The notes below the pieces were generated by a model that saw nothing but the letters and a program-made list of their open reading frames with translations, was not told the DNA's origin and searched no databases. From Acinetobacter kyonggiensis (GTDB lineage Bacteria > Pseudomonadota > Gammaproteobacteria > Pseudomonadales > Moraxellaceae): a DNA stretch of 64,000 nucleotides. The stretch lies in assembly GCF_900107285.1 (NCBI RefSeq), contig NZ_FNPK01000005.1, positions 62,001 to 126,000 on the forward strand, read 5' to 3'. This document shows positions 7,702 to 15,562 of the stretch, piece after piece (within the stretch, counting starts at the first letter, position 1; every line of letters begins with the position of its first letter). The position numbers and the translations under genes are program-made.

Positions 7702-8060
7702 GGGGGTGTTTCTGGCTTCGACGCTGGTGATGAAACTCATAGATGCATGCCGAGAGCGCATTTTCTCTCGTAAATCAAATTTGCATTTTTTAGTCGCAAA
7801 CGACGAATCATACGCTCTAGCTGCCTAAGGGCAGCTTGTCCGCCTCTCCGAATACTTGTGGTTAGAGAGTCCGACTGAAGCGCACGCACACAAGTCCGTA
7901 TAAAACCAAGCCTTGGGGTTTTGTACTAAATTAAGAGGATCGCGATTTGTACCCTGTTCGTCGGGTCACAAAGAGTTAAAACAATAGACGATATCTAAGC
8001 ATGTAGTATTCTCGAGCGTAGTGCTGGCGGACGCGGGTTCAACTCCCGCCACCTCCACCA
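7702..8060 (+). ncRNA. ssrA: Transfer-messenger RNA (tmRNA)
   Basis: The tRNA-like domain is complete. The 5' GGGGGUG pairs with 3' CACCUCC before ACCA, with one G-U pair. The T-arm reads GCGGGTTCAACTCCCGC and the end is an encoded CCA. The internal reading frame at 7796-7828 encodes ANDESYALAA and a TAA stop; this is the degradation tag added to proteins on stalled ribosomes. The tag ends in the hydrophobic ALAA recognised by ClpXP-type proteases. The 3' end is a classic integration site, and a tyrosine recombinase gene starts 180 bp downstream. Confidence 0.95.
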
Positions 8061-8240: not shown

Positions 8241-9470
8241 ATGAAAAGATCAGAAATAAAACGCCGTCCTTTGTCTGATACTGTAATTGCCAATCTTGAA
8301 GCAGAACTAAAAGAATATCGTGAGCTTGACGGCAATGGTCTGTATATCAGAGTAAAACCCGATGGTAATAAGTCATGGCAACTTCGATATAAAAAGCCTA
8401 ATGGTAAATGGTCGTGGTTGGGCTTAGGTGGTTATCCTGAAATCAGTGGTCAATTAGCACGTAAGAAAGGCAAAGAACTTTTGGATGATGTATCCAGAGG
8501 TGAAAATCCAATCATTACTAAGCAAGAAAGAAAACTCCAAGAGCTTGAGCAAAATAACGCGACCTTTGAAATATTGGCTCGTGAATGGTTGGATACGAAA
8601 GTAAATACTTGGGTAACCGATACGATGACCCGAAATAAAGGTGCATTAGAAAAGCATATATTCCCTATTTTTGGTAAACGCTTATACACCACGATTAAAC
8701 CAATTGAATGGATGAACTTGTTAAAAGGTATACAGCAGTCACAGGGTATATATGAACAGGTGAACCGTGTCCGTGCGATGTGTCGTGATATTTATGATTT
8801 TGCTAAGGTGACAGGTCGTATTGATTACAATCCTTTAGAGGGTATTCAGAAATACCTTGAGCAAGGTAAAAAAACCAATATGGCACATGTGGATGAAAAG
8901 GAATTACCAACATTAATCCGAGCAATTAATAATTACCCCACTATGGACGTAAGAATGGGATTACAGCTTTTAGCTATGCTGTTTTGTCGCCCTAGTGAGC
9001 TAAGAGGGGCTAAATGGGATGAGTTCGATTTAGAACAAGGCTTGTGGAATATCCCTGAAGAACGAATGAAAAAACGCCGCGAGCATGTTGTACCTTTGCC
9101 TAAGCAAGCTATTGCCATACTTACTGAATTAAAAACTTATGAAACCAATTCAGAGTATTTATTCCCCAGTAGATCGGACAAGAGCAAACCAAAATCAGAT
9201 ACAGTTTTTATCATGGCTTTACGGCGCATGGGCTTTGAGGGTAGGCAGACACCACATGGTTTTAGACATATTGCCAGTACCTTGTTAAATAATCGTGGTT
9301 TTGATGAACGTCATATTGAGGCTGCTTTAGCTCATGTTAAGAATGGCGTAGCAGGGGTATATAATAAGGCCCAATACCTACAGGACAGGGCGAATATGAT
9401 GCAGTGGTATGCAGATCATTTAGAAGAAATAGCAGATCAGAGCATTATTCAATTTAAAAAAGTTAAATAA
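8241..9470 (+). CDS. P4-type tyrosine recombinase (integrase) of the ssrA island
   Basis: This 409-residue protein has an N-terminal DUF4102-like arm-binding domain (DGNGLYIRVKPDGNKSWQLRY), a core-binding domain, and a catalytic domain. The catalytic residues are visible: the Arg of FCRPSELRGAKWDEF, the His and Arg of TPHGFRH, the His of ALAHVKNGVAGVYN and a Tyr in that last stretch. The gene points away from ssrA and sits 180 bp from its 3' end, the usual place for an integrase that targets tmRNA. The last 326 bp are repeated almost exactly at 11720-12044. Confidence 0.92.
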   Translation: MKRSEIKRRPLSDTVIANLEAELKEYRELDGNGLYIRVKPDGNKSWQLRYKKPNGKWSWLGLGGYPEISGQLARKKGKELLDDVSRGENPIITKQERKLQELEQNNATFEILAREWLDTKVNTWVTDTMTRNKGALEKHIFPIFGKRLYTTIKPIEWMNLLKGIQQSQGIYEQVNRVRAMCRDIYDFAKVTGRIDYNPLEGIQKYLEQGKKTNMAHVDEKELPTLIRAINNYPTMDVRMGLQLLAMLFCRPSELRGAKWDEFDLEQGLWNIPEERMKKRREHVVPLPKQAIAILTELKTYETNSEYLFPSRSDKSKPKSDTVFIMALRRMGFEGRQTPHGFRHIASTLLNNRGFDERHIEAALAHVKNGVAGVYNKAQYLQDRANMMQWYADHLEEIADQSIIQFKKVK

Positions 9471-9484
9471 TATCGAGATAAAAA

Positions 9485-10387
9485 ATGCAAATGAAAAGAG
9501 GCGTAAGAGAATATTCACATGAGGAATTTTTGGAAATTTTAAATAGTCGTGAATATAAGAATGATCATCAAAAAGTTACTCATGAATTAGCCTGTCATTT
9601 GGAAATTTTTGAAGCTCAATTTTCAGGAACACATTTTCGTCATGCTTATTCGCTAATTAATACAGTACTTGTGGATTTCTTTGTAAGTAAACAGAATCTA
9701 TATGATTATGAAAATATCGAATATCTTCACGAGGATTTATGTGAATGGAGAAACAGTGAGTTTGAAAAGATTTTGAAGGAGGAAAATGTTGACCTTGAAA
9801 AGTTTAAATTTCATTTTTTTAAATATTCAGATTTCTGTTATGAGTTATTTAGTTATAAACAGATAGATGGAATATATTTTTTAGAGTTACCTGATGAAAA
9901 AATAATTAAACTTGAAGAAGCTGATTTTTTCGCATTATGTATTTTTACTTACCACAGACTACACCCTACATCACATAAAGATCATGGCTATTGGTATTTG
10001 AGTGAGGAGGATGCTTATGATAAATGGTTATCTATAGAAAAATTACAAAAATTAATGCCCGTGACATTTCATTATGACAAAGTTTTAAATACTGAATATT
10101 GGTTTTCTATTATTAATGAATTATTTATCTATTTTCAAAATGCATTGATAAGAAGCGGACATAAAATTGCTCTAAGTAAGGAAAAATCACGTTTAGCTAA
10201 AATAAAGGCGGAAAGGTATAAGCAGGAAACAGCTAAAAATTTTAAAAATATCGAGGAATTATGGGATAGTGGTAACTGGGAAAAAGCAACAAAATGTGCA
10301 CAAGATATTTTTGATTTAGATGGGGTCGCACTACCCTACAATACTGTTTATAGATATATTCTTGAGTACAAAAAATCTAAAAAATGA
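9485..10387 (+). CDS. Uncharacterised cargo protein of element 1
   Basis: This 300-residue protein is acidic, aromatic-rich and has no signal peptide or obvious membrane segment. I do not recognise the family. It starts 14 nt after the integrase stop. The N-terminal half is rich in helical Glu/Lys stretches. Residues 235-260 (LSKEKSRLAKIKAERYKQET) look like a charged helix or short coiled coil. Codon use is much more AT-rich than the surrounding core genes. Its slot between integrase and AlpA-like regulator is where small integrative elements often carry variable cargo, including phage defence genes; that role is inference from position only. Confidence 0.75.
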   Translation: MQMKRGVREYSHEEFLEILNSREYKNDHQKVTHELACHLEIFEAQFSGTHFRHAYSLINTVLVDFFVSKQNLYDYENIEYLHEDLCEWRNSEFEKILKEENVDLEKFKFHFFKYSDFCYELFSYKQIDGIYFLELPDEKIIKLEEADFFALCIFTYHRLHPTSHKDHGYWYLSEEDAYDKWLSIEKLQKLMPVTFHYDKVLNTEYWFSIINELFIYFQNALIRSGHKIALSKEKSRLAKIKAERYKQETAKNFKNIEELWDSGNWEKATKCAQDIFDLDGVALPYNTVYRYILEYKKSKK

Positions 10388-10391
10388 ATTT

Positions 10392-10421
10392 TGCTAGCAC
10401 TTATTGATATCTGCTAGCACT
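10392..10421 (+). promoter_or_regulatory. Direct repeat TGCTAGCACT, two copies 20 bp apart
   Basis: TGCTAGCACT occurs at 10392-10401 and 10412-10421. Each contains the palindrome GCTAGC, and the spacing is two helical turns, upstream of the AlpA-like gene. This is the pattern of a regulator operator. Confidence 0.45.
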
Positions 10422-10483
10422 CAAGTTTCAATTAATTTTATACAAAACATAATACATCTAAGGCTTAAACATATAGGTGTATT

Positions 10484-10700
10484 TATGACAATTTATCCAG
10501 TACGTATCCAATTTAAAACAGCTTGCCAAATTCTTGATGTAAGTCGTGAAACTTTAAATCAGTTAATCAAGTTAGACCCTACATTTCCTCAAAAAATTAA
10601 GATGGGAACTGCTAAACAGTCACCTGTGTATTTTGATTATGCCGAGCTTGCAGAGTGGCATAACAGCCAAAAGCAAGGCCTTGCAGCAATGGAGGCTTAA
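10484..10700 (+). CDS. AlpA-like helix-turn-helix regulator, element 1
   Basis: This 71-residue protein has an excisionase/AlpA-type layout: FKTACQILDVSRETLNQLIK is a helix-turn-helix, followed by FPQKIKMG and a YFDYAELAEWHNSQ wing. AlpA-like proteins activate excisionase or integrase genes of P4-type elements. I chose the ATG at 10484 because the homologue at 13215 starts at the same point; a longer frame to 10404 exists. It shares about half its residues with the copy at 13215-13430, evidence of a duplicated module. Confidence 0.75.
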
Positions 10701-10702
10701 TC

Positions 10703-11413
10703 ATGAATCAATTAGTGAATCTTTCTGCTGCTTCAATGTCTAGCATGCATATCTCCGAGTTAGTTCAATCTCGCCATGACAAAGTAAAACAATCTATTGA
10801 AAGACTTGTAGAGCGCGGTGTAATTATTCAACCCCCAATGGGGGATGAACAATCTATTGACACTATGGGGAGATCCAGAAGTACGCAAGTTTATGTATTT
10901 TCAGGTGAGCAAGGTAAGCGCGATAGCATTATTGTCGTAGCACAATTATGCCCTGAATTCACAGCGCGACTGGTCGACCGCTGGCAAGAGCTGGAAAAAC
11001 AGGTTAAGTATACTAATCTTGACCTACACGATCCTTATGCCCTACGCCGTGCCTTATTGGACTATACCGAGCAAGTCATTCATCTTGAAACACAAAATTA
11101 CTCTCTTGAATGTACGATCGACACCATTACTCAAACACCTTCAGGTGTGAAATTTCAGCAAGCCTGCAAAATTCTGAATATCAAGCGTCAAGTTTTAGCT
11201 GATTGGTTGCGTTCTCATGGTTGGGATCGAAGATTGCAAAAAGCTCGTGCATCAACTCACTACAGCCAAGAACGAGGTTATTGTGAAACCAAATATGAAG
11301 AAGTGACGAGAGTCAAAACGAATGGTGAGTTAGGAAGCTACAGCAAGATTGAATTCTTTATTCTACCTAAGGGCATGCAAGTACTGGCCAAATATTTTGG
11401 CAAGGTAGGGTAG
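10703..11413 (+). CDS. Rha-type phage regulator with antirepressor-like C-terminal domain
   Basis: A 236-residue protein. The N-terminal half (MSSMHISELVQSRHDKVKQS, then WQELEKQ near residue 95) fits the Rha-family phage regulatory domain. The C-terminal half (GVKFQQACKILNIKRQVLAD to the end) resembles the ANT/KilAC DNA-binding domain of antirepressors. It begins 3 nt after the AlpA-like stop with AGGCTTAATCATGAA, the same junction seen before the Bro-N gene of element 2. Such proteins interfere with phage repression; the target here is unknown. Confidence 0.7.
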   Translation: MNQLVNLSAASMSSMHISELVQSRHDKVKQSIERLVERGVIIQPPMGDEQSIDTMGRSRSTQVYVFSGEQGKRDSIIVVAQLCPEFTARLVDRWQELEKQVKYTNLDLHDPYALRRALLDYTEQVIHLETQNYSLECTIDTITQTPSGVKFQQACKILNIKRQVLADWLRSHGWDRRLQKARASTHYSQERGYCETKYEEVTRVKTNGELGSYSKIEFFILPKGMQVLAKYFGKVG

Positions 11414-11415
11414 CT

Positions 11416-11718
11416 ATGAAAGGGTTAATCACTTCTCAATACAATGGCCAAGAACTCAGTTTTAGTGAACAAGGCTGGTTTAATGCCACTCAAGCAGCAA
11501 GTCGTTTTAATAAAAAGCCTAATGACTGGCTACGTTTACCTGATACGCAGCGCTATGTTGATGCTCTGATAAAAAGAGAAGATCAAAAAAGTGATACGAG
11601 ATTATCCCGCATCACTGATTTTGTAAAAACCCAGAAAGGCAATTCAAAGTTATTTACATAAGGCACTTGGCTGCATCCAAAATTAGCCGTGCGCTTTGCC
11701 CAGTGGCTAGATTATGAA
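11416..11718 (+). pseudogene. KilA-N domain gene, truncated by a nonsense codon and a deletion junction
   Basis: The frame begins MKGLITSQYNGQELSFSEQG and FNATQAASRFNKKPNDWL, a KilA-N DNA-binding domain. It is stopped by TAA at 11659-11661. After the stop the same frame continues GTWLHPKLAVRFAQWLDYE, the expected rest of the KilA-N fold, so a CAA-to-TAA nonsense change is likely. At about 11715-11720 the sequence switches, within a TATGAA microhomology, into a copy of the integrase 3' end. The gene is therefore broken twice. Confidence 0.75.
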
Positions 11719-11719
11719 G

Positions 11720-12044
11720 CTAATTCTGAGTATCTATTCCCCAGTAGATCGGACAAGAGGAAACCAAAATCGGATACAGTTTTTATCATGGTTTTACGGC
11801 GCATGGGATTTGAGGGTAGGCAGACACCACATGGTTTTAGACATATTGCCAGTACCTTGTTAAATAATTGTGGTTTTGATGAACGTCATATTGAGGCTGC
11901 TTTAGCTCATGTTAAGGACGGCGTAGCAGGGGTATATAATAAGGCCCAATACCTACAGGACAGGGCGAATATGATGCAGTGGTATGCAGATCATTTAGAA
12001 GAAATAGCAGATCAGAGCATTATTCAATTTAAAAAGGTTAAGTG
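11720..12044 (+). pseudogene. Integrase 3' fragment (second recombinase remnant)
   Basis: About 325 bp encode the C-terminal catalytic part of a tyrosine recombinase, from NSEYLFPSRSD to the stop. It is nearly identical to 9145-9470 apart from scattered substitutions (for example NNRGF becomes NNCGF and HVKNG becomes HVKDG). The fragment keeps the HGFRH and AALAH motifs and the Tyr but lacks the first catalytic Arg and all DNA-binding domains. It marks the start of a second, related element whose left end was deleted. Confidence 0.85.
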
Positions 12045-12194
12045 ACATTCCTTGTCGCACTAATGCCAAGATATACACAAATATAATTAAATATCGTTTA
12101 TATTCAGTTTGCTAAGTCTAGGCTGATCCCCGAAAGTCGAATATCCAATTTGATTGGCTTAGCTATTTCTTGGGGATGCTGTGGGAGGCAAAAT

Positions 12195-13085
12195 TTGAGA
12201 ACAATAATTAGATCAAGCGATTTATTACCGCCATTATTTAGTATTGATAAATATAAAGATATGGATAGGCTTTCTGCAAATACATGGTTTCATTTATTGG
12301 AAGCTCGTTATTTAATTCAGCGTGAAATACTTGAGGGCAGAGGCTTAGAGTTTTGGATTGGAGAAGATGTATTAAATACTGATGAAGAACAGGAAGCCAT
12401 ATCACTACTGTTTGAGTATTTTTTTAAAAATCCTTTAAATCCAAACTTATTAATAAATTATAAAAAGCAAAATGGTGAAACTATTTGCATTCAAATAACC
12501 GACACTGAAAGCGATGGTTTCAAGAAAAATCATTTGCCAGTATCTGAATTTTACGCAAAAGACTTTGATTTACTACATTCAATGGTAAGTAGTTATGATG
12601 GAAAATTTACTGATAATGATGATAGATCGATTTTAGAAGTAGTTGAGCCTTTATTTTCAAAAGAATACATCTTTGTTGACTATCCTATCACAATAAACCC
12701 CTACTATCCTGACCATGTACTTATTGATGAATTCAAAAAAATGCTGACCAAAATTAGAAGTAAAAGGTCTAAAGATAATTCAAAATATAAGTCAATTTCG
12801 TATAAAGATTTAATCAATTGGGCATCTTACAAGTTACTTCCTTACTTAGATTTAAAGTTGCTAGAAATTTATGAGGGTATAAAAATAACCAATCCAGTAA
12901 TTTGTTCTGTCCTTTATCCAAAGGGCGAGTACGGCGAAGATAATCTGCGTAAAAGTGTAGAGCCATTGAGGCAAAAATTATTAACTCAGATAGGTTTTGA
13001 TAGTGCTGATGGAATAACCGAAGTCAGTATCTTTGATGGCTTATGCTATTTAGCATTTCATGAAAAGGCTCAAACGGAAAAATAA
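12195..13085 (+). CDS. Uncharacterised cargo protein of element 2 (possibly DUF6387-like)
   Basis: This roughly 296-residue protein starts at a TTG preceded by GGGAGG 6 nt upstream; an earlier TTG at 12150 has no ribosome site. The opening (LLPPLFSIDKYKDMDRL) and the overall size recall DUF6387-type proteins next to phage integrases; this match is from memory and weak. No membrane segment or catalytic motif is evident. It lies between the integrase fragment and an AlpA-like gene, the same slot as the unrelated gene at 9485, so it is probably exchangeable cargo. AT-rich codon use suggests foreign origin. Confidence 0.7.
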   Translation: MRTIIRSSDLLPPLFSIDKYKDMDRLSANTWFHLLEARYLIQREILEGRGLEFWIGEDVLNTDEEQEAISLLFEYFFKNPLNPNLLINYKKQNGETICIQITDTESDGFKKNHLPVSEFYAKDFDLLHSMVSSYDGKFTDNDDRSILEVVEPLFSKEYIFVDYPITINPYYPDHVLIDEFKKMLTKIRSKRSKDNSKYKSISYKDLINWASYKLLPYLDLKLLEIYEGIKITNPVICSVLYPKGEYGEDNLRKSVEPLRQKLLTQIGFDSADGITEVSIFDGLCYLAFHEKAQTEK

Positions 13086-13182
13086 AGCCTTTAAAATTTC
13101 CGTAAAAAAATAATATTAATAAATTACGGATTATTTTTCCTAAGCCTCATTCCTTTAAAGCTATATAAGACAAAAACATACT

Positions 13183-13214
13183 AAGCCCATATTCTTTCAT
13201 GTATGGGCTTTTTT
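13183..13214 (+). terminator. Terminator ending the element-2 cargo gene
   Basis: AAGCCCAT, a 12-nt loop, ATGGGCTT and a T-run. It ends exactly one base before the AlpA-like ATG at 13215, so that gene may use a promoter overlapping the hairpin or depend on read-through. Confidence 0.75.
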
Positions 13215-13430
13215 ATGTCGATCAAACCAATCCGCGTTCAATTCAAAACAGCTTGTGAGCTACTGGATATAAGCCGTGAAGCACTGCGCCATAAAGTACG
13301 TACCGATGCCTCTTTTCCACGCCCGATCAAAGAAGGTGATACCAAACAAGCACCAGTCTATTTCGACTATGCTGAGCTTGTAGACTGGCATAACAGCCAA
13401 AAGCAAAGCCTCGCAGTATTAGAGGCTTAA
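13215..13430 (+). CDS. AlpA-like helix-turn-helix regulator, element 2
   Basis: A 71-residue paralogue of the protein at 10484, aligned end to end: FKTACELLDISREALRHKV is the helix-turn-helix and YFDYAELVDWHNSQKQSLA the tail. I chose this start because an upstream in-frame ATG at 13203 lies inside the terminator stem. It is followed 3 nt later by a Bro-N gene, where the first element has a Rha gene instead. Confidence 0.75.
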   Translation: MSIKPIRVQFKTACELLDISREALRHKVRTDASFPRPIKEGDTKQAPVYFDYAELVDWHNSQKQSLAVLEA

Positions 13431-13432
13431 TC

Positions 13433-13984
13433 ATGAACCATCAAACCCAAGTATTGGCCCGCCTTAAAAGAGGCGCAGGTATGAATCCATTTACTTTTAA
13501 TTTCAATGAACACGGCGTTCGTGTTGTCTTTGATGGGAACAACGAGCCTTTATTTTGTCTTACTGATGTATGTCGTATTTTATCTGTAGACCGCACATCA
13601 CGCCTATTACGTGACTTAGATGCAAAGGGTATGGCAGATTGCCACATCCCTACAAATGGCGGTACTCAGAAAGTAAAATTTATAAATGAACCGAATTTAT
13701 ACCGCATCATTTTCCGATCCAATAAACCCGCAGCTATTAACTTCCAAAACTGGGTATTTGCCGAGGTACTGCCAACCATTCGCAAAACAGGTTCATATTC
13801 AGCAAGACAGACCGCATACGAAGAATTAAACCGTCTATGTATGCAAGAAAAAGAATCCAAAGATAAGGGTTCATTTCACAGTCATGGTATGCACCGCCGT
13901 AAACGTGAAAAGCACTTGAATGCTGTACGTATTGAAACGTGCAAAACCAATCTAGAGCTTACTTTTGAGGGGGTTATACAATGA
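13433..13984 (+). CDS. Bro-N family phage antirepressor-like protein
   Basis: This 183-residue protein carries a Bro-N domain at about residues 20-120: VRVVFDGNNEPLFCLTDVCRIL, then GGTQKVKFINEPNLYRIIFRS and FQNWVFAEVLPTIRKTGSY. All are hallmark stretches of that family. The C-terminal part is short and basic, with no recognised second domain. An internal ATG at 13482 could also be the start. It overlaps the next gene by an ATGA junction, indicating translational coupling. Confidence 0.8.
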   Translation: MNHQTQVLARLKRGAGMNPFTFNFNEHGVRVVFDGNNEPLFCLTDVCRILSVDRTSRLLRDLDAKGMADCHIPTNGGTQKVKFINEPNLYRIIFRSNKPAAINFQNWVFAEVLPTIRKTGSYSARQTAYEELNRLCMQEKESKDKGSFHSHGMHRRKREKHLNAVRIETCKTNLELTFEGVIQ

Positions 13985-14349
13985 ATAATCATACACCCCC
14001 TGAGTTTTTCAAAGCCTTTGACCACTATAAAGCCATGTTGGCCCAGTACGGTGAAGACCACCCCATCACAGAACGGGCATTCATTCTCACCATGCACTAC
14101 ACGCCTGATCATATCAAAGCGGAAATGGATGCTAAAGCCAAAGAATTGAATCTACTGCCACCAGTAAGCGGATACACCGATGATGGCGAAGCTATGTATA
14201 GCTTAGATGACATTGCTAAACATTTCGGTATCAGTATTGACGATGCTGAACAGCATTTATTGCAGATGATGGATAACCGCCAAAAGGTCGGGCTGTCCAA
14301 TGACGGTATTTTGATGAACTCAAATATCCATATCAACCGTGTGCAATGA
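13981..14349 (+). CDS. Small phage-element protein with HTH-like C-terminal segment
   Basis: A 122-residue protein I do not recognise. YSLDDIAKHFGISIDDAEQH at about residues 72-91 has the spacing of a helix-turn-helix. The N-terminal part is helical and acidic. It is coupled to the Bro-N gene by a 4-bp overlap and precedes a Rha-type gene by 10 nt, so it belongs to the element-2 operon. A DNA-binding role is inferred from the HTH pattern only. Confidence 0.6.
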   Translation: MNNHTPPEFFKAFDHYKAMLAQYGEDHPITERAFILTMHYTPDHIKAEMDAKAKELNLLPPVSGYTDDGEAMYSLDDIAKHFGISIDDAEQHLLQMMDNRQKVGLSNDGILMNSNIHINRVQ

Positions 14350-14359
14350 GGGCTAGACC

Positions 14360-15052
14360 ATGAATCAATTAACAGTACCAGCATTAACCATGTCTACTCG
14401 TGATATTGCAGAGCTGACAGGCAAAGATCATAAGCATATTTTACGTGATTGTTTAACCATGTTTGAAGAACTTGGCTTAGACCCTATGGGGTATGCCCAG
14501 AACTGGACACACCCCCAAAACGGTCAAACTTATATTGAGTATTTACTCCCTAAAGACTTGGTAGAAACGCTTATCACCGGGTACAGCATTAAATTACGCT
14601 ATCAGGTCATTCAACGACTGCATGAGCTTGAAAACATACTTAAACCTAAGCTGATGTTGCCCGAAGATTTACCAAGCGCATTACGTGCCTTGGCAGACAC
14701 CCACGAACAGCTCCAGCAGGCACAATTTGAACGCGAAATTGCTGTTAAGACTAAAGCACATATCAGTGATAAAAAGACCGCTACGGCAATGGCAACAGCC
14801 AGTAACGCCGTACAGGAAAACTCGCGTTTAAAAGATCAAATCGGGCAAAGCAAACGCAATGCTACCGTCTTAGCTGTCGAACGATTAACAGGGAAAAGTT
14901 ATACATGGCCACCCTTAAATAAATGGTGTAAATCTCACGGCGTAAAACCATCAAAAGTGCATGATGATCGTTACGGCAAAGTAAATACCTACCCAGCTCA
15001 GGCATGGACAGACGTTTATAGAGTGGACTTATCCGAATTATTTGGAAGGTGA
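14360..15052 (+). CDS. Rha-type phage regulator, element 2
   Basis: A 230-residue protein. Residues 1-95 fit a Rha-family domain (MSTRDIAELTGKDHKHILRD, then YLLPKDLVETLITGYSIKLR and RYQVIQRLHELE). A Gln/Ala-rich helix follows at about 110-160. The C-terminal part (VLAVERLTGKSYTWPPLNKW) resembles a DNA-binding tail. It corresponds by position and N-terminal sequence (MNQL...) to the Rha gene at 10703, although the C-terminal domains differ. This is the last clear gene of the mobile region. Confidence 0.7.
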   Translation: MNQLTVPALTMSTRDIAELTGKDHKHILRDCLTMFEELGLDPMGYAQNWTHPQNGQTYIEYLLPKDLVETLITGYSIKLRYQVIQRLHELENILKPKLMLPEDLPSALRALADTHEQLQQAQFEREIAVKTKAHISDKKTATAMATASNAVQENSRLKDQIGQSKRNATVLAVERLTGKSYTWPPLNKWCKSHGVKPSKVHDDRYGKVNTYPAQAWTDVYRVDLSELFGR

Positions 15053-15562
15053 GCGCTATGAAAAACCTCTCTATAAACCTTTTAAAATTGTTCTCAGTTC
15101 GGGCAATAACTGTTTTTCTTGTTGCAAGCTGCACAAAACCATCTTATGCTAAGCGCGTTCACCCTCATGGTGAATTAGCTTTGGTCGGCTACGAATATCT
15201 AGTGCATATACCGCACTTTCAAGCGGTTTTTTTGTGCATGCTCTCCGCATCTTTGCGTTTTATGGTGATGATGTACTTTAATGATGCTTACATCGATCAT
15301 GGCATCTTCAAGGTCAATATTCGTATTTATTATCGTAAAATAGTTTCAAATCCTCCCGCTTTGGCCCAAGCTCTATCTCTTTCAAAATAGCATGCTTTGT
15401 TTCAAAGCGGGAGGTATTGCATCATGGGCTATCTGTACGGCAATCGATAAGGCAGCTTCGAATATCGCGATGATATAAGATTCATTCATGATTTTTATTT
15501 TTTAACAGTTTAGTACAGTCCGCTTTAAATCTTCAAAAAGTATAACGATTCAGTTTGCTGTG
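15053..15562. other. Right edge of the mobile region; hairpins, no firm gene
   Basis: An open frame at 15049-15390 (+) overlaps the previous stop and begins MKNLSINLLKLFSVRAITVF. It contains a terminator-like hairpin (ACCGC-ACTTTCAA-GCGGT then seven T) at about 15209-15231, so I do not call it as a gene. A perfect 12-bp inverted repeat, CCTCCCGCTTTG at 15352-15363 and CAAAGCGGGAGG at 15403-15414, follows. No copy of the ssrA 3' end was found here that would define the right attachment site. Confidence 0.5.

What the first reader, a model, noticed from the sequence alone, without database searches (positions are those of the whole stretch)
8241..15052. Two tandem minimal integrative elements at ssrA with swapped cargo
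Module order is repeated: integrase (or its 3' end), an unrelated cargo gene, an AlpA-like regulator, then antirepressor-type genes. AlpA-like proteins are paralogous end to end and the junction AGGCTTAATCATGAA recurs. Cargo genes at 9485 and 12195 are unrelated to each other. No replication, packaging or capsid gene is present. This fits a family of tiny satellites carrying exchangeable cargo, possibly phage defence.
Basis: partly seen in the sequence, partly recalled or inferred. Interest (0 to 1): 0.62.

Follow-up and report, generated by a model that had tools for sequence, protein, structure and literature searches.

The report
Two broken satellites, one swappable switch
Next to the tmRNA gene of an Acinetobacter chromosome lie the left halves of two phage satellites, and the gene that looks like swapped cargo is more likely an exchangeable control gene that travels together with its own DNA binding sites.

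Summary
In detail: integrase, variable gene, AlpA and antirepressor genes occur twice after ssrA. The reading mostly does not. The copies are not minimal. All 18 bounded relatives tabled run on through a large protein (13 of a DUF927/DUF3987 cluster) and a right-end bay to an attR. In the window one deletion fuses element 1 to element 2's integrase and another cuts element 2 at 15191; the genome holds no DUF927 or DUF3987 gene. Known defence genes sit in the right-end bay of relatives, lost here; 1 of 32 slot proteins has a borderline PADLOC hit. The slot swap is real: 243 of 276 element pairs with alike integrases have unrelated slot genes. But the gene moves with neighbouring DNA: two satellites 98% alike differ in one block (RNA leader, slot gene, repeats) ending 48 bp before alpA. 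Slot-alpA spacers carry phased operator-like repeats that partly match the protein's C-terminal module. Best reading: an exchangeable alpA regulator. Binding and control are untested.

The parts
7702..8060 (+). ssrA (tmRNA); its last ~16 bases (8045-8060) are the left attachment region
   Evidence: ARAGORN and Rfam. 28 of 40 regions hold the attR motif TTCAATTGACGCCA at 12 or more of 14 matches; in 12 of the 28 it is followed at once by a CCACCA tail as at the ssrA end, in the others the tail is shorter or diverged
8241..9470 (+). element 1 integrase (tyrosine recombinase), intact ORF of 409 aa
   Evidence: Pfam Phage_integrase 1.7e-25; 65 of 175 genus genomes, the own one included, have a relative at E<=1e-100
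9485..10387 (+). element 1 slot gene, 300 aa, no Pfam/PHROG/PADLOC/NCBIfam family at E 0.01; starts 14 nt after int; C-terminal module shared with other slot proteins
   Evidence: C-terminal matches only (from residue 224) in 3 other genus genomes, each directly 3' of an integrase
10392..10421 (.). operator-like direct repeat: TGCTAGCACT at 10392-10401 and 10412-10421, 20 bp apart, each with palindromic TGCTAGCA
   Evidence: direct p=0.002, inverted p=0.010 against 400 dinucleotide shuffles; positions
10485..10700 (+). element 1 AlpA-like regulator
   Evidence: Pfam PF05930 1.3e-4
10703..11413 (+). element 1 Rha/ANT antirepressor-type protein
   Evidence: phrog_63 6e-36, PF03374 1.2e-9
11416..11711 (+). 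element 1 KilA-N gene, broken: in-frame stop at 11659-11661 and 3' part lost at the deletion junction
   Evidence: PF04383 6e-8; comparison with a longer relative in L062
11712..12045 (+). 3' end of element 2 integrase, fused to the KilA-N fragment; short match TTATGAA at the junction (inferred microhomology deletion)
   Evidence: 96% to 9137-9436; Phage_integrase 1e-11; junction printed
12110..12189 (+). int-alpA RNA (Rfam RF02996) leader in front of element 2 slot gene
   Evidence: Rfam 30.4 bits, E 0.003, below gathering 35.8; local model R1 97.5 bits but this copy was in the training set; 8 of 14 pairs with double changes in 16 sequences
12195..13085 (+). element 2 slot gene, DUF6387 (PF19924), TTG start
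   Evidence: E 2.8e-30, 106 bits against cut-off 28.9
13099..13130 (.). inverted repeat TCCGTAA...TTACGGA between slot gene and alpA (weak)
   Evidence: sequence, positions; a like repeat in G033 (L143); not significant alone (p=0.159)
13203..13430 (+). element 2 AlpA-like regulator, 97% identical to that of relative L045
13433..13984 (+). Bro-N antirepressor-type gene
   Evidence: PF02498 8e-21
13981..14349 (+). phrog_18446 protein
   Evidence: 3e-10
14360..15052 (+). Rha-type regulator, 90% identical to L045
   Evidence: phrog_4936 2.6e-62
15049..15191 (+). last stretch of element 2; similarity to L045 (84%) stops at 15191, before the C4 RNA and the DUF927 protein of that relative

Best explanation
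The region is the remains of two phage satellites of one family (integrase, slot cassette, AlpA, antirepressor-type regulators, large replication-type protein, right-end bay, attR) that integrated one behind the other at ssrA. One deletion removed the right part of element 1 and the left part of element 2; a second removed the right part of element 2. The gene between int and alpA is not passive cargo. It is the protein part of an exchangeable regulatory cassette: a modular protein with a variable front and one of several C-terminal modules, plus the phased repeat array in front of alpA that this module binds, often preceded by the int-alpA RNA. Replacing the cassette changes how alpA, the excision/induction switch, is controlled. 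Shown: truncation, cassette exchange, repeats, and a partial match of C-terminal module with repeat type. Inferred: DNA binding by the slot protein, control of alpA, and its sign. I lean to an activator: in six module A elements the last repeat core ends 29-31 bp before a -10-like box whose -35 match is little better than in shuffles, and PICMI work found the gene in the same place needed for excision.
For: Relatives and attR. Truncation: 62, 63; no DUF3987 or DUF927 in the own genome: 51, 52. Cassette exchange: 243 of 276 pairs unrelated; L047 and L048 98.6%/97.7% identical on both sides of one unalignable block (L047 2831-3595) holding RNA, slot gene and repeats, with AlpA 100% and Int 99% identical; L042/L075 and L047/L070 share slot gene and repeats with integrases 49% identical. 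Repeats: 16 of 29 slot-alpA spacers p<0.05 against 1 of 29 in each coding control; direct repeats 11 of 29, six of those eleven at 20-21 bp spacing; hold-out of 11 elements with other integrase lineages: direct 3, inverted 6, slot coding control 1 and 0. Module-repeat match: same C-module in different families z 2.07 (n 19) against -0.02 (n 175), permutation p 0.0016; CTAGC in 8 of 10 module-A-like against 2 of 31 others. Distance to a CATA[CA]T box: 124, 125, 127. PICMI iolg needed for excision: PMC10803314 (passages).
Against: My first repeat metric gave a much weaker result (5 of 29, Fisher 5e-3); the stronger one was chosen after seeing it. The window's element 2 spacer is not significant alone (p=0.159). 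L153 and L155 resemble cargo 1 at the C-terminus but have TGTACAT repeats, not CTAGC. In the cross-element score modules A and B show no shared repeats; C and D carry the result. The four c23 spacers are barely alike (z -1.2 to 3.6 over 6 pairs). Sharing of C-terminus and neighbouring repeats could be physical linkage. The -10-like box was found in 16 of 30 spacers only. No slot protein matched a DNA-binding family and both structure models are poor. Nine elements have int directly followed by alpA with no slot gene. 4 of 11 Acinetobacter DUF6387 genes lie outside int/ssrA context. PICMI authors place iolg in the excision complex instead.
Confidence: 0.55

Rival explanations
1. The slot protein is a repressor of alpA (immunity-type cassette): it keeps the satellite silent, gives superinfection immunity within its own type and is inactivated by the helper. 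Swapping it makes satellites heteroimmune.
For: Same cassette evidence. [quoted passage not shown]
Against: Loss of the gene in the same place in PICMI115 blocks excision instead of releasing it (PMC10803314). Where the box was found, the repeats lie upstream of it, not over it.
Confidence: 0.2
2. The slot protein is a replication initiator that binds iterons; the cassette is an origin/incompatibility unit.
For: Phased repeats at 20-21 bp; several copies in L052 and, by eye, in AT-rich spacers of the c23 family; RNA leader in front of the gene.
Against: In module A elements with the box the repeats keep a near-constant distance to it just before alpA; many relatives carry a large DUF927/DUF3987-cluster protein elsewhere.
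Confidence: 0.12
3. The slot protein is an excision cofactor of the integrase, as its PICMI authors suggest for IOLG; the repeats belong to something else.
For: Genetics in PICMI115 (PMC10803314); position behind int for all three cargo 1 relatives.
Against: Nearly the same integrase (99% identical) goes with unrelated slot proteins in L047 and L048, and the same slot family goes with integrases 49% identical.
Confidence: 0.1
4. The slot is an exchangeable cargo position, including anti-phage defence genes of still unknown type.
For: The slot proteins are diverse and nearly all lack known families.
Against: Defence genes are found in the right-end bay, not here; slot proteins share C-terminal modules across families and are swapped with repeat arrays.
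Confidence: 0.08

Closest known systems
PICMI satellites of Vibrionaceae (PMC10803314; passages read)
   Same: Order int, variable gene (iolg/icg, 13 families), alpA, primase of DUF3987 type; six of seven divergent PICMI have alpA in 2-3 copies, which the authors put down to multiple integration, gene loss and recombination
   Different: PICMI115 sits by fis; here the site is ssrA. Relatives here are larger (about 6-17 kb in 18 tabled) and several carry right-end defence genes, C4 and int-alpA RNAs; both window copies lack a primase
Gram-negative PICIs (PMC6092414; passages read)
   Same: Integrase, AlpA, replication module and similar size in intact relatives
   Different: The ssrA site is also used by short elements with a filamentous-phage-type replication gene, so it may not be exclusive; phage induction untested; window copies incomplete
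P4-like satellites (PMC8628076, PMC9122126; starts of abstracts seen in search listings only)
   Same: AlpA-like protein; C4-class antisense RNA in relatives, which I recall from P4 and P1
   Different: P4 packaging genes were not searched for; C4 RNA not in the window at gathering score
int-alpA RNA, Rfam RF02996
   Same: Found between int and alpA, as the family name says; several relatives pass the gathering score
   Different: Here seen as the front part of an exchanged cassette, ahead of a slot gene; window copy below gathering score
DUF6387, PF19924
   Same: Cargo 2 is a clear member
   Different: Pfam gives no function; here in the int-alpA slot

Membership tests
Gram-negative PICI | integrase and AlpA regulator together | tested here: met
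Gram-negative PICI | replication module | tested here: not met
   none among the window genes and no DUF3987 or DUF927 in the own genome; such genes present in intact relatives
Gram-negative PICI | attachment site never used by prophages | tested here: inconclusive
   six elements of 4-5 kb at ssrA carry a G2P-type phage replication protein; whether they are whole prophages was not tested
Gram-negative PICI | no structural or lysis genes | tested here: met
   for the window genes only
Gram-negative PICI | induction and packaging by a helper phage | not testable with these tools
   needs phage and strain
PICMI | int, alpA and prim co-located | tested here: not met
   prim missing in the window; a DUF3987 protein is present in relative L040
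PICMI | fis integration site (optional in one passage, mandatory in the Methods passage of PMC10803314) | tested here: not met
   site is ssrA
P4-like | P4 capsid/packaging genes (names recalled: sid, delta, psu) | not tested
   not searched for
int-alpA RNA RF02996 | score at or above gathering threshold | tested here: inconclusive
   window 30.4 bits against 35.8, E 0.003; relatives up to 46.4
DUF6387 | PF19924 score above cut-off | tested here: met
   106.2 bits against 28.9
anti-phage defence gene | match to a known defence family | tested here: not met
   cargo 1 none; cargo 2 E 0.007 to PDC-S57 over 29 residues only

The most novel reading that the evidence does not exclude
The gene between int and alpA in Gram-negative satellites is an exchangeable switch protein, with a variable sensor-like front and a swappable DNA-binding module that comes with its own operator array at the alpA promoter. 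Satellites change which helper or immunity group they obey by replacing this one cassette. This would be the missing upstream regulator of AlpA.
Probability: 0.4. Interest if true: 0.78.

Novelty: new variant of a known kind. Interest (0 to 1): 0.6.

Why it matters
How helper phages switch on AlpA in Gram-negative satellites is open in the papers seen: PMC6092414 calls a global repressor unclear, and PMC10803314 asks how the helper activates the early regulon (passages). A cassette of one gene plus its putative binding sites, swapped between otherwise near-identical satellites, gives a ready-made pair (L047/L048) to test this directly. It also gives a genetic context to the int-alpA RNA and warns that variable genes beside integrases should not be counted as defence cargo.

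Tried and rejected
Rejected: (1) elements bounded inside the window: no second ssrA end or attR motif there. (2) Known phage defence in the slot: PADLOC. (3) Repeats as slot-gene terminators only: direct repeats are significant too. (4) Repeats as AlpA sites: elements with near-identical AlpA have different repeats. (5) The C4 RNA as the leader: the leader is RF02996, not C4; C4 lies further right in relatives.

Led nowhere: single-sequence models of cargo 1 and 2 (pLDDT 41.9 and 38.0), so no fold search was run; PDB searches (best for module A was a homeodomain at E 0.045, not significant); plasmids, phages and viral contigs for cargo 1 and 2. Co-resident elements with different slots are too few to test heteroimmunity.

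Rows dropped: L037, L051, L057 and L074 (no slot-AlpA pair found) and the G2P-type elements L066-L069, L071, L072 from the slot tables (L066 was still in the 32 proteins). L073 has both ends but was left out of the 18. L039, L061 and L073 were left out of the repeat test (one search shows a 399-nt spacer in L039 and a 14-nt one in L061; L073 is not). Of 37 hold-out loci I used 11 (slot ORF found with a gap of 60-300 bp to alpA and a spacer of at least 24 nt; L168 was too short; L188 and L189 are L153 and L155 again). L170 in the hold-out, one of its six inverted-repeat positives, has an integrase-like slot ORF and is doubtful. For L154, in the CTAGC count, 150 nt after the stop were taken because no alpA was found; without it the count is 7 of 9. 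The script picked a wrong core copy for L165 and L166; one search measured them again.
Full report
What is there. After ssrA (7702-8060) come an intact tyrosine integrase (8241-9470), an unfamilied ORF (9485-10387), an AlpA-like protein, a Rha/ANT antirepressor, a broken KilA-N gene, the 3' end of a second integrase (11712-12045), a DUF6387 gene (12195-13085), a second AlpA and three more genes, two of them antirepressor-type, to 15052. The two integrase ends are 96% identical at the DNA level and the AlpA proteins 62% identical over 71 residues.

The site and the family. In 175 held genomes of the genus (Acinetobacter by the named relatives), 65 have an integrase relative at E 1e-100 or better, the own genome included. 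I read 40 regions, two of them from the own genome. 28 of 40 contain a copy of TTCAATTGACGCCA on the integrase strand with at least 12 of 14 matches; in 12 of the 28 it runs straight into a CCACCA tail as at the ssrA end. In L067 and L071 the sequence beyond is that of the native ssrA flank in genomes read without the element there. In three (L039, L045, L051) a copy lies just upstream of an integrase, as expected for elements in tandem. I take it as the right attachment site. For the 18 satellites tabled with both ends, int to attR spans about 6.1-17.1 kb, and all 18 carry a large protein after the regulators: 13 belong to one cluster whose two tested members are DUF3987 and DUF927 proteins; 5 carry an unrelated protein of 384-404 aa with no Pfam match over cut-off. 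So the family is a satellite family, not a set of minimal elements.

Why the window copies look minimal. Element 1 runs into a KilA-N gene that has an in-frame stop and is then joined to the integrase of element 2 at a short common TTATGAA; I infer one deletion. Element 2 is 84-92% identical to relative L045 in three blocks and the match ends at 15191, 67 bp short of the place of that relative's C4 antisense RNA and well before its DUF927 protein. The own genome has no DUF3987 or DUF927 match. Both copies are therefore remnants, probably unable to replicate by themselves.

Where the defence genes are. Of 32 slot proteins (30 from relatives and the two in the window) one has a PADLOC match, at E 0.007. 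No family covers more than two of the 32 in Pfam, PHROGs or NCBIfam at E 0.01, and one of the 32 (L066) is a phage-type replication protein. The 54 proteins of 100 aa or more between the large protein and attR match 265 PADLOC families at 1e-5 (the call does not say how many of the 54). Among ten of the 54 scanned singly, seven match at 1e-10: Dsr1, type I restriction, OloB, type III methyltransferase twice, Drt8 and PDC-S20; three (L041, L045, L048) do not. The defence bay of these satellites is the right end, which both window copies have lost.

The slot really is exchanged. 276 pairs of elements have integrases at least 74% identical; in 243 the slot proteins show no similarity at E 1e-3, in 11 partial, in 22 full-length. 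The proteins are mosaics: different fronts share C-terminal modules. Cargo 1 itself has no full-length relative found in the other 174 genus genomes; three genomes share only the part from residue 224, each time in a gene directly 3' of a distant integrase (29-35% identity), and in two of the three an alpA follows. DUF6387 occurs in 11 of 175 genus genomes, the own one included: 5 directly after an integrase, 2 directly after ssrA, 4 elsewhere; 7 of 11 lie before alpA. In the class, 5 further genomes of 369 have it, 3 of them beside a weak integrase match.

What is exchanged is more than a gene. L047 and L048 are 98.6% identical up to 2830 and 97.7% identical from 3596 on (L047 coordinates); the block between does not align, and it holds the RNA leader, the slot gene and the spacer, ending 48 bp before alpA. 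Their AlpA proteins are 100% and their integrases 99% identical. In the other direction, L042/L075 and L047/L070 share slot family and spacer although their integrases are 49% identical.

The spacer. From slot stop to 45 nt before alpA, I tested 29 elements. A first measure (best 12-nt window) gave 5 of 29 at p<0.05, Fisher 5e-3, with controls at 1 and 0 of 29. A scored-segment measure, chosen after that, gave 16 of 29, Fisher 5e-16, against 1 of 29 in slot coding and 1 of 29 in alpA coding controls. Split up, direct repeats reach p<0.05 in 11 of 29 and inverted in 15 of 29; the four coding controls gave 0, 1, 3 and 0 of 29. Six of the eleven significant direct repeats are 20 or 21 bp apart, two helical turns; several units are palindromic. 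In the window, element 1 has TGCTAGCACT twice, 20 bp apart (p=0.002); element 2 has only a weak inverted repeat (p=0.159). In 11 held-out elements from other integrase lineages direct repeats reached p<0.05 in 3 and inverted in 6 (one of these, L170, is doubtful), against 1 and 0 in slot coding.

Match of protein and repeat. Elements of different slot families with the same C-terminal module share more in their spacers (mean z 2.07, n 19) than elements with different modules (-0.02, n 175; permutation over families p 0.0016), driven by modules C and D; the A and B pairs lie near zero. Within slot families the mean z is 10 (n 17), but the four c23 spacers are hardly alike. For module A the core CTAGC occurs in 8 of 10 A-like elements against 2 of 31 others. 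The motif was noticed on five of the ten; the two clear hold-outs, L165 and L166, have it (three copies 20 bp apart in L166), L153 and L155 do not, and L154 was counted on a looser region. L158, a hold-out with module B, has the module B motif. In module A elements the last core ends 31, 30, 31, 29, 30 and 30 bp before a CATA[CA]T box (L052, L047, L070, window element 1, L165, L166); L038 has no such box. The box was found in 16 of 30 spacers, and its best -35 match averages 3.06 of 6 against 2.66 in shuffles. A weak -35 with bound sites just upstream suggests activation, but the promoter itself is inferred.

The RNA. Element 2 has the Rfam int-alpA RNA before its slot gene (30.4 bits, below the gathering score of 35.8). 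Five of nine relatives' loci pass that score, and L158 does. A local model from 16 sequences has double changes at 8 of 14 pairs and finds 25 copies in 54 sources at E 0.5, 9 of them outside the training set. Of 30 int-slot junctions read, 18 have the RNA (one, L070, only at 22 bits; in L046 it precedes a second ORF); the 12 without it all start their slot gene within 66 nt of the integrase stop.

How it works, in my view. A helper phage signal reaches the slot protein; through its C-terminal module it acts on the phased sites and turns on alpA, which brings excision and the downstream operon. PICMI work (PMC10803314, passages) found int, iolg and alpA all needed for excision, alpA alone sufficient to induce it, and alpA in an early helper-induced regulon. 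That is what an alpA activator at the iolg place would give, though the authors place IOLG in the excision complex. No binding, transcription or phage test has been done. Searches for a published Gram-negative satellite repressor, for the slot gene or for these Acinetobacter ssrA satellites (and passages of PMC11773190) returned nothing on this cassette in what I saw; that covers only the held open-licence library.

Noticed in passing
own contig C56 129765 (about window position 67765, outside the window): An attR-like motif followed by a decayed left end of another satellite (first 33 integrase residues) lies 60 kb right of ssrA. Together with the tRNA-Arg and gene match to G018 (L063) this suggests that window 8-64 kb, catabolic genes that I take for ben/cat included, lies inside a roughly 70-kb interval between ssrA and tRNA-Arg that is 7 kb in G018.
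   Followed up: partly
G064, G110, G122, G013, G103: Integrase copies of this family lie about 33-124 kb downstream of ssrA, suggesting long accretion arrays at this site.
   Followed up: partly
L066-L069, L071, L072: Short elements (about 4-5 kb) with a filamentous-phage-type replication gene (G2P family, six of six) use the same ssrA site with a related integrase.
   Followed up: partly
L042, L045, L047, L050, L062, L158, L159, L165, L166: C4 antisense RNA (RF01695) above gathering score. In the first five it lies between the regulator genes and the large DUF927/DUF3987-cluster protein, so these satellites seem to carry C4-type RNA control as well.
   Followed up: partly
L177-L179, L181, L182, L184-L187: Nine elements of a related integrase lineage have int followed by alpA within 113-198 bp, with no slot ORF of 100 aa.
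   Followed up: no
L143, L149 (G033, G056): DUF6387 gene directly after ssrA with alpA and a Bro-N match behind it and no integrase between.
   Followed up: no
window 13183-13210: Terminator-like hairpin ending at the alpA start of element 2; terminator-like hairpins before alpA in 10 of 23 elements against 3 of 230 shuffles.
   Followed up: partly
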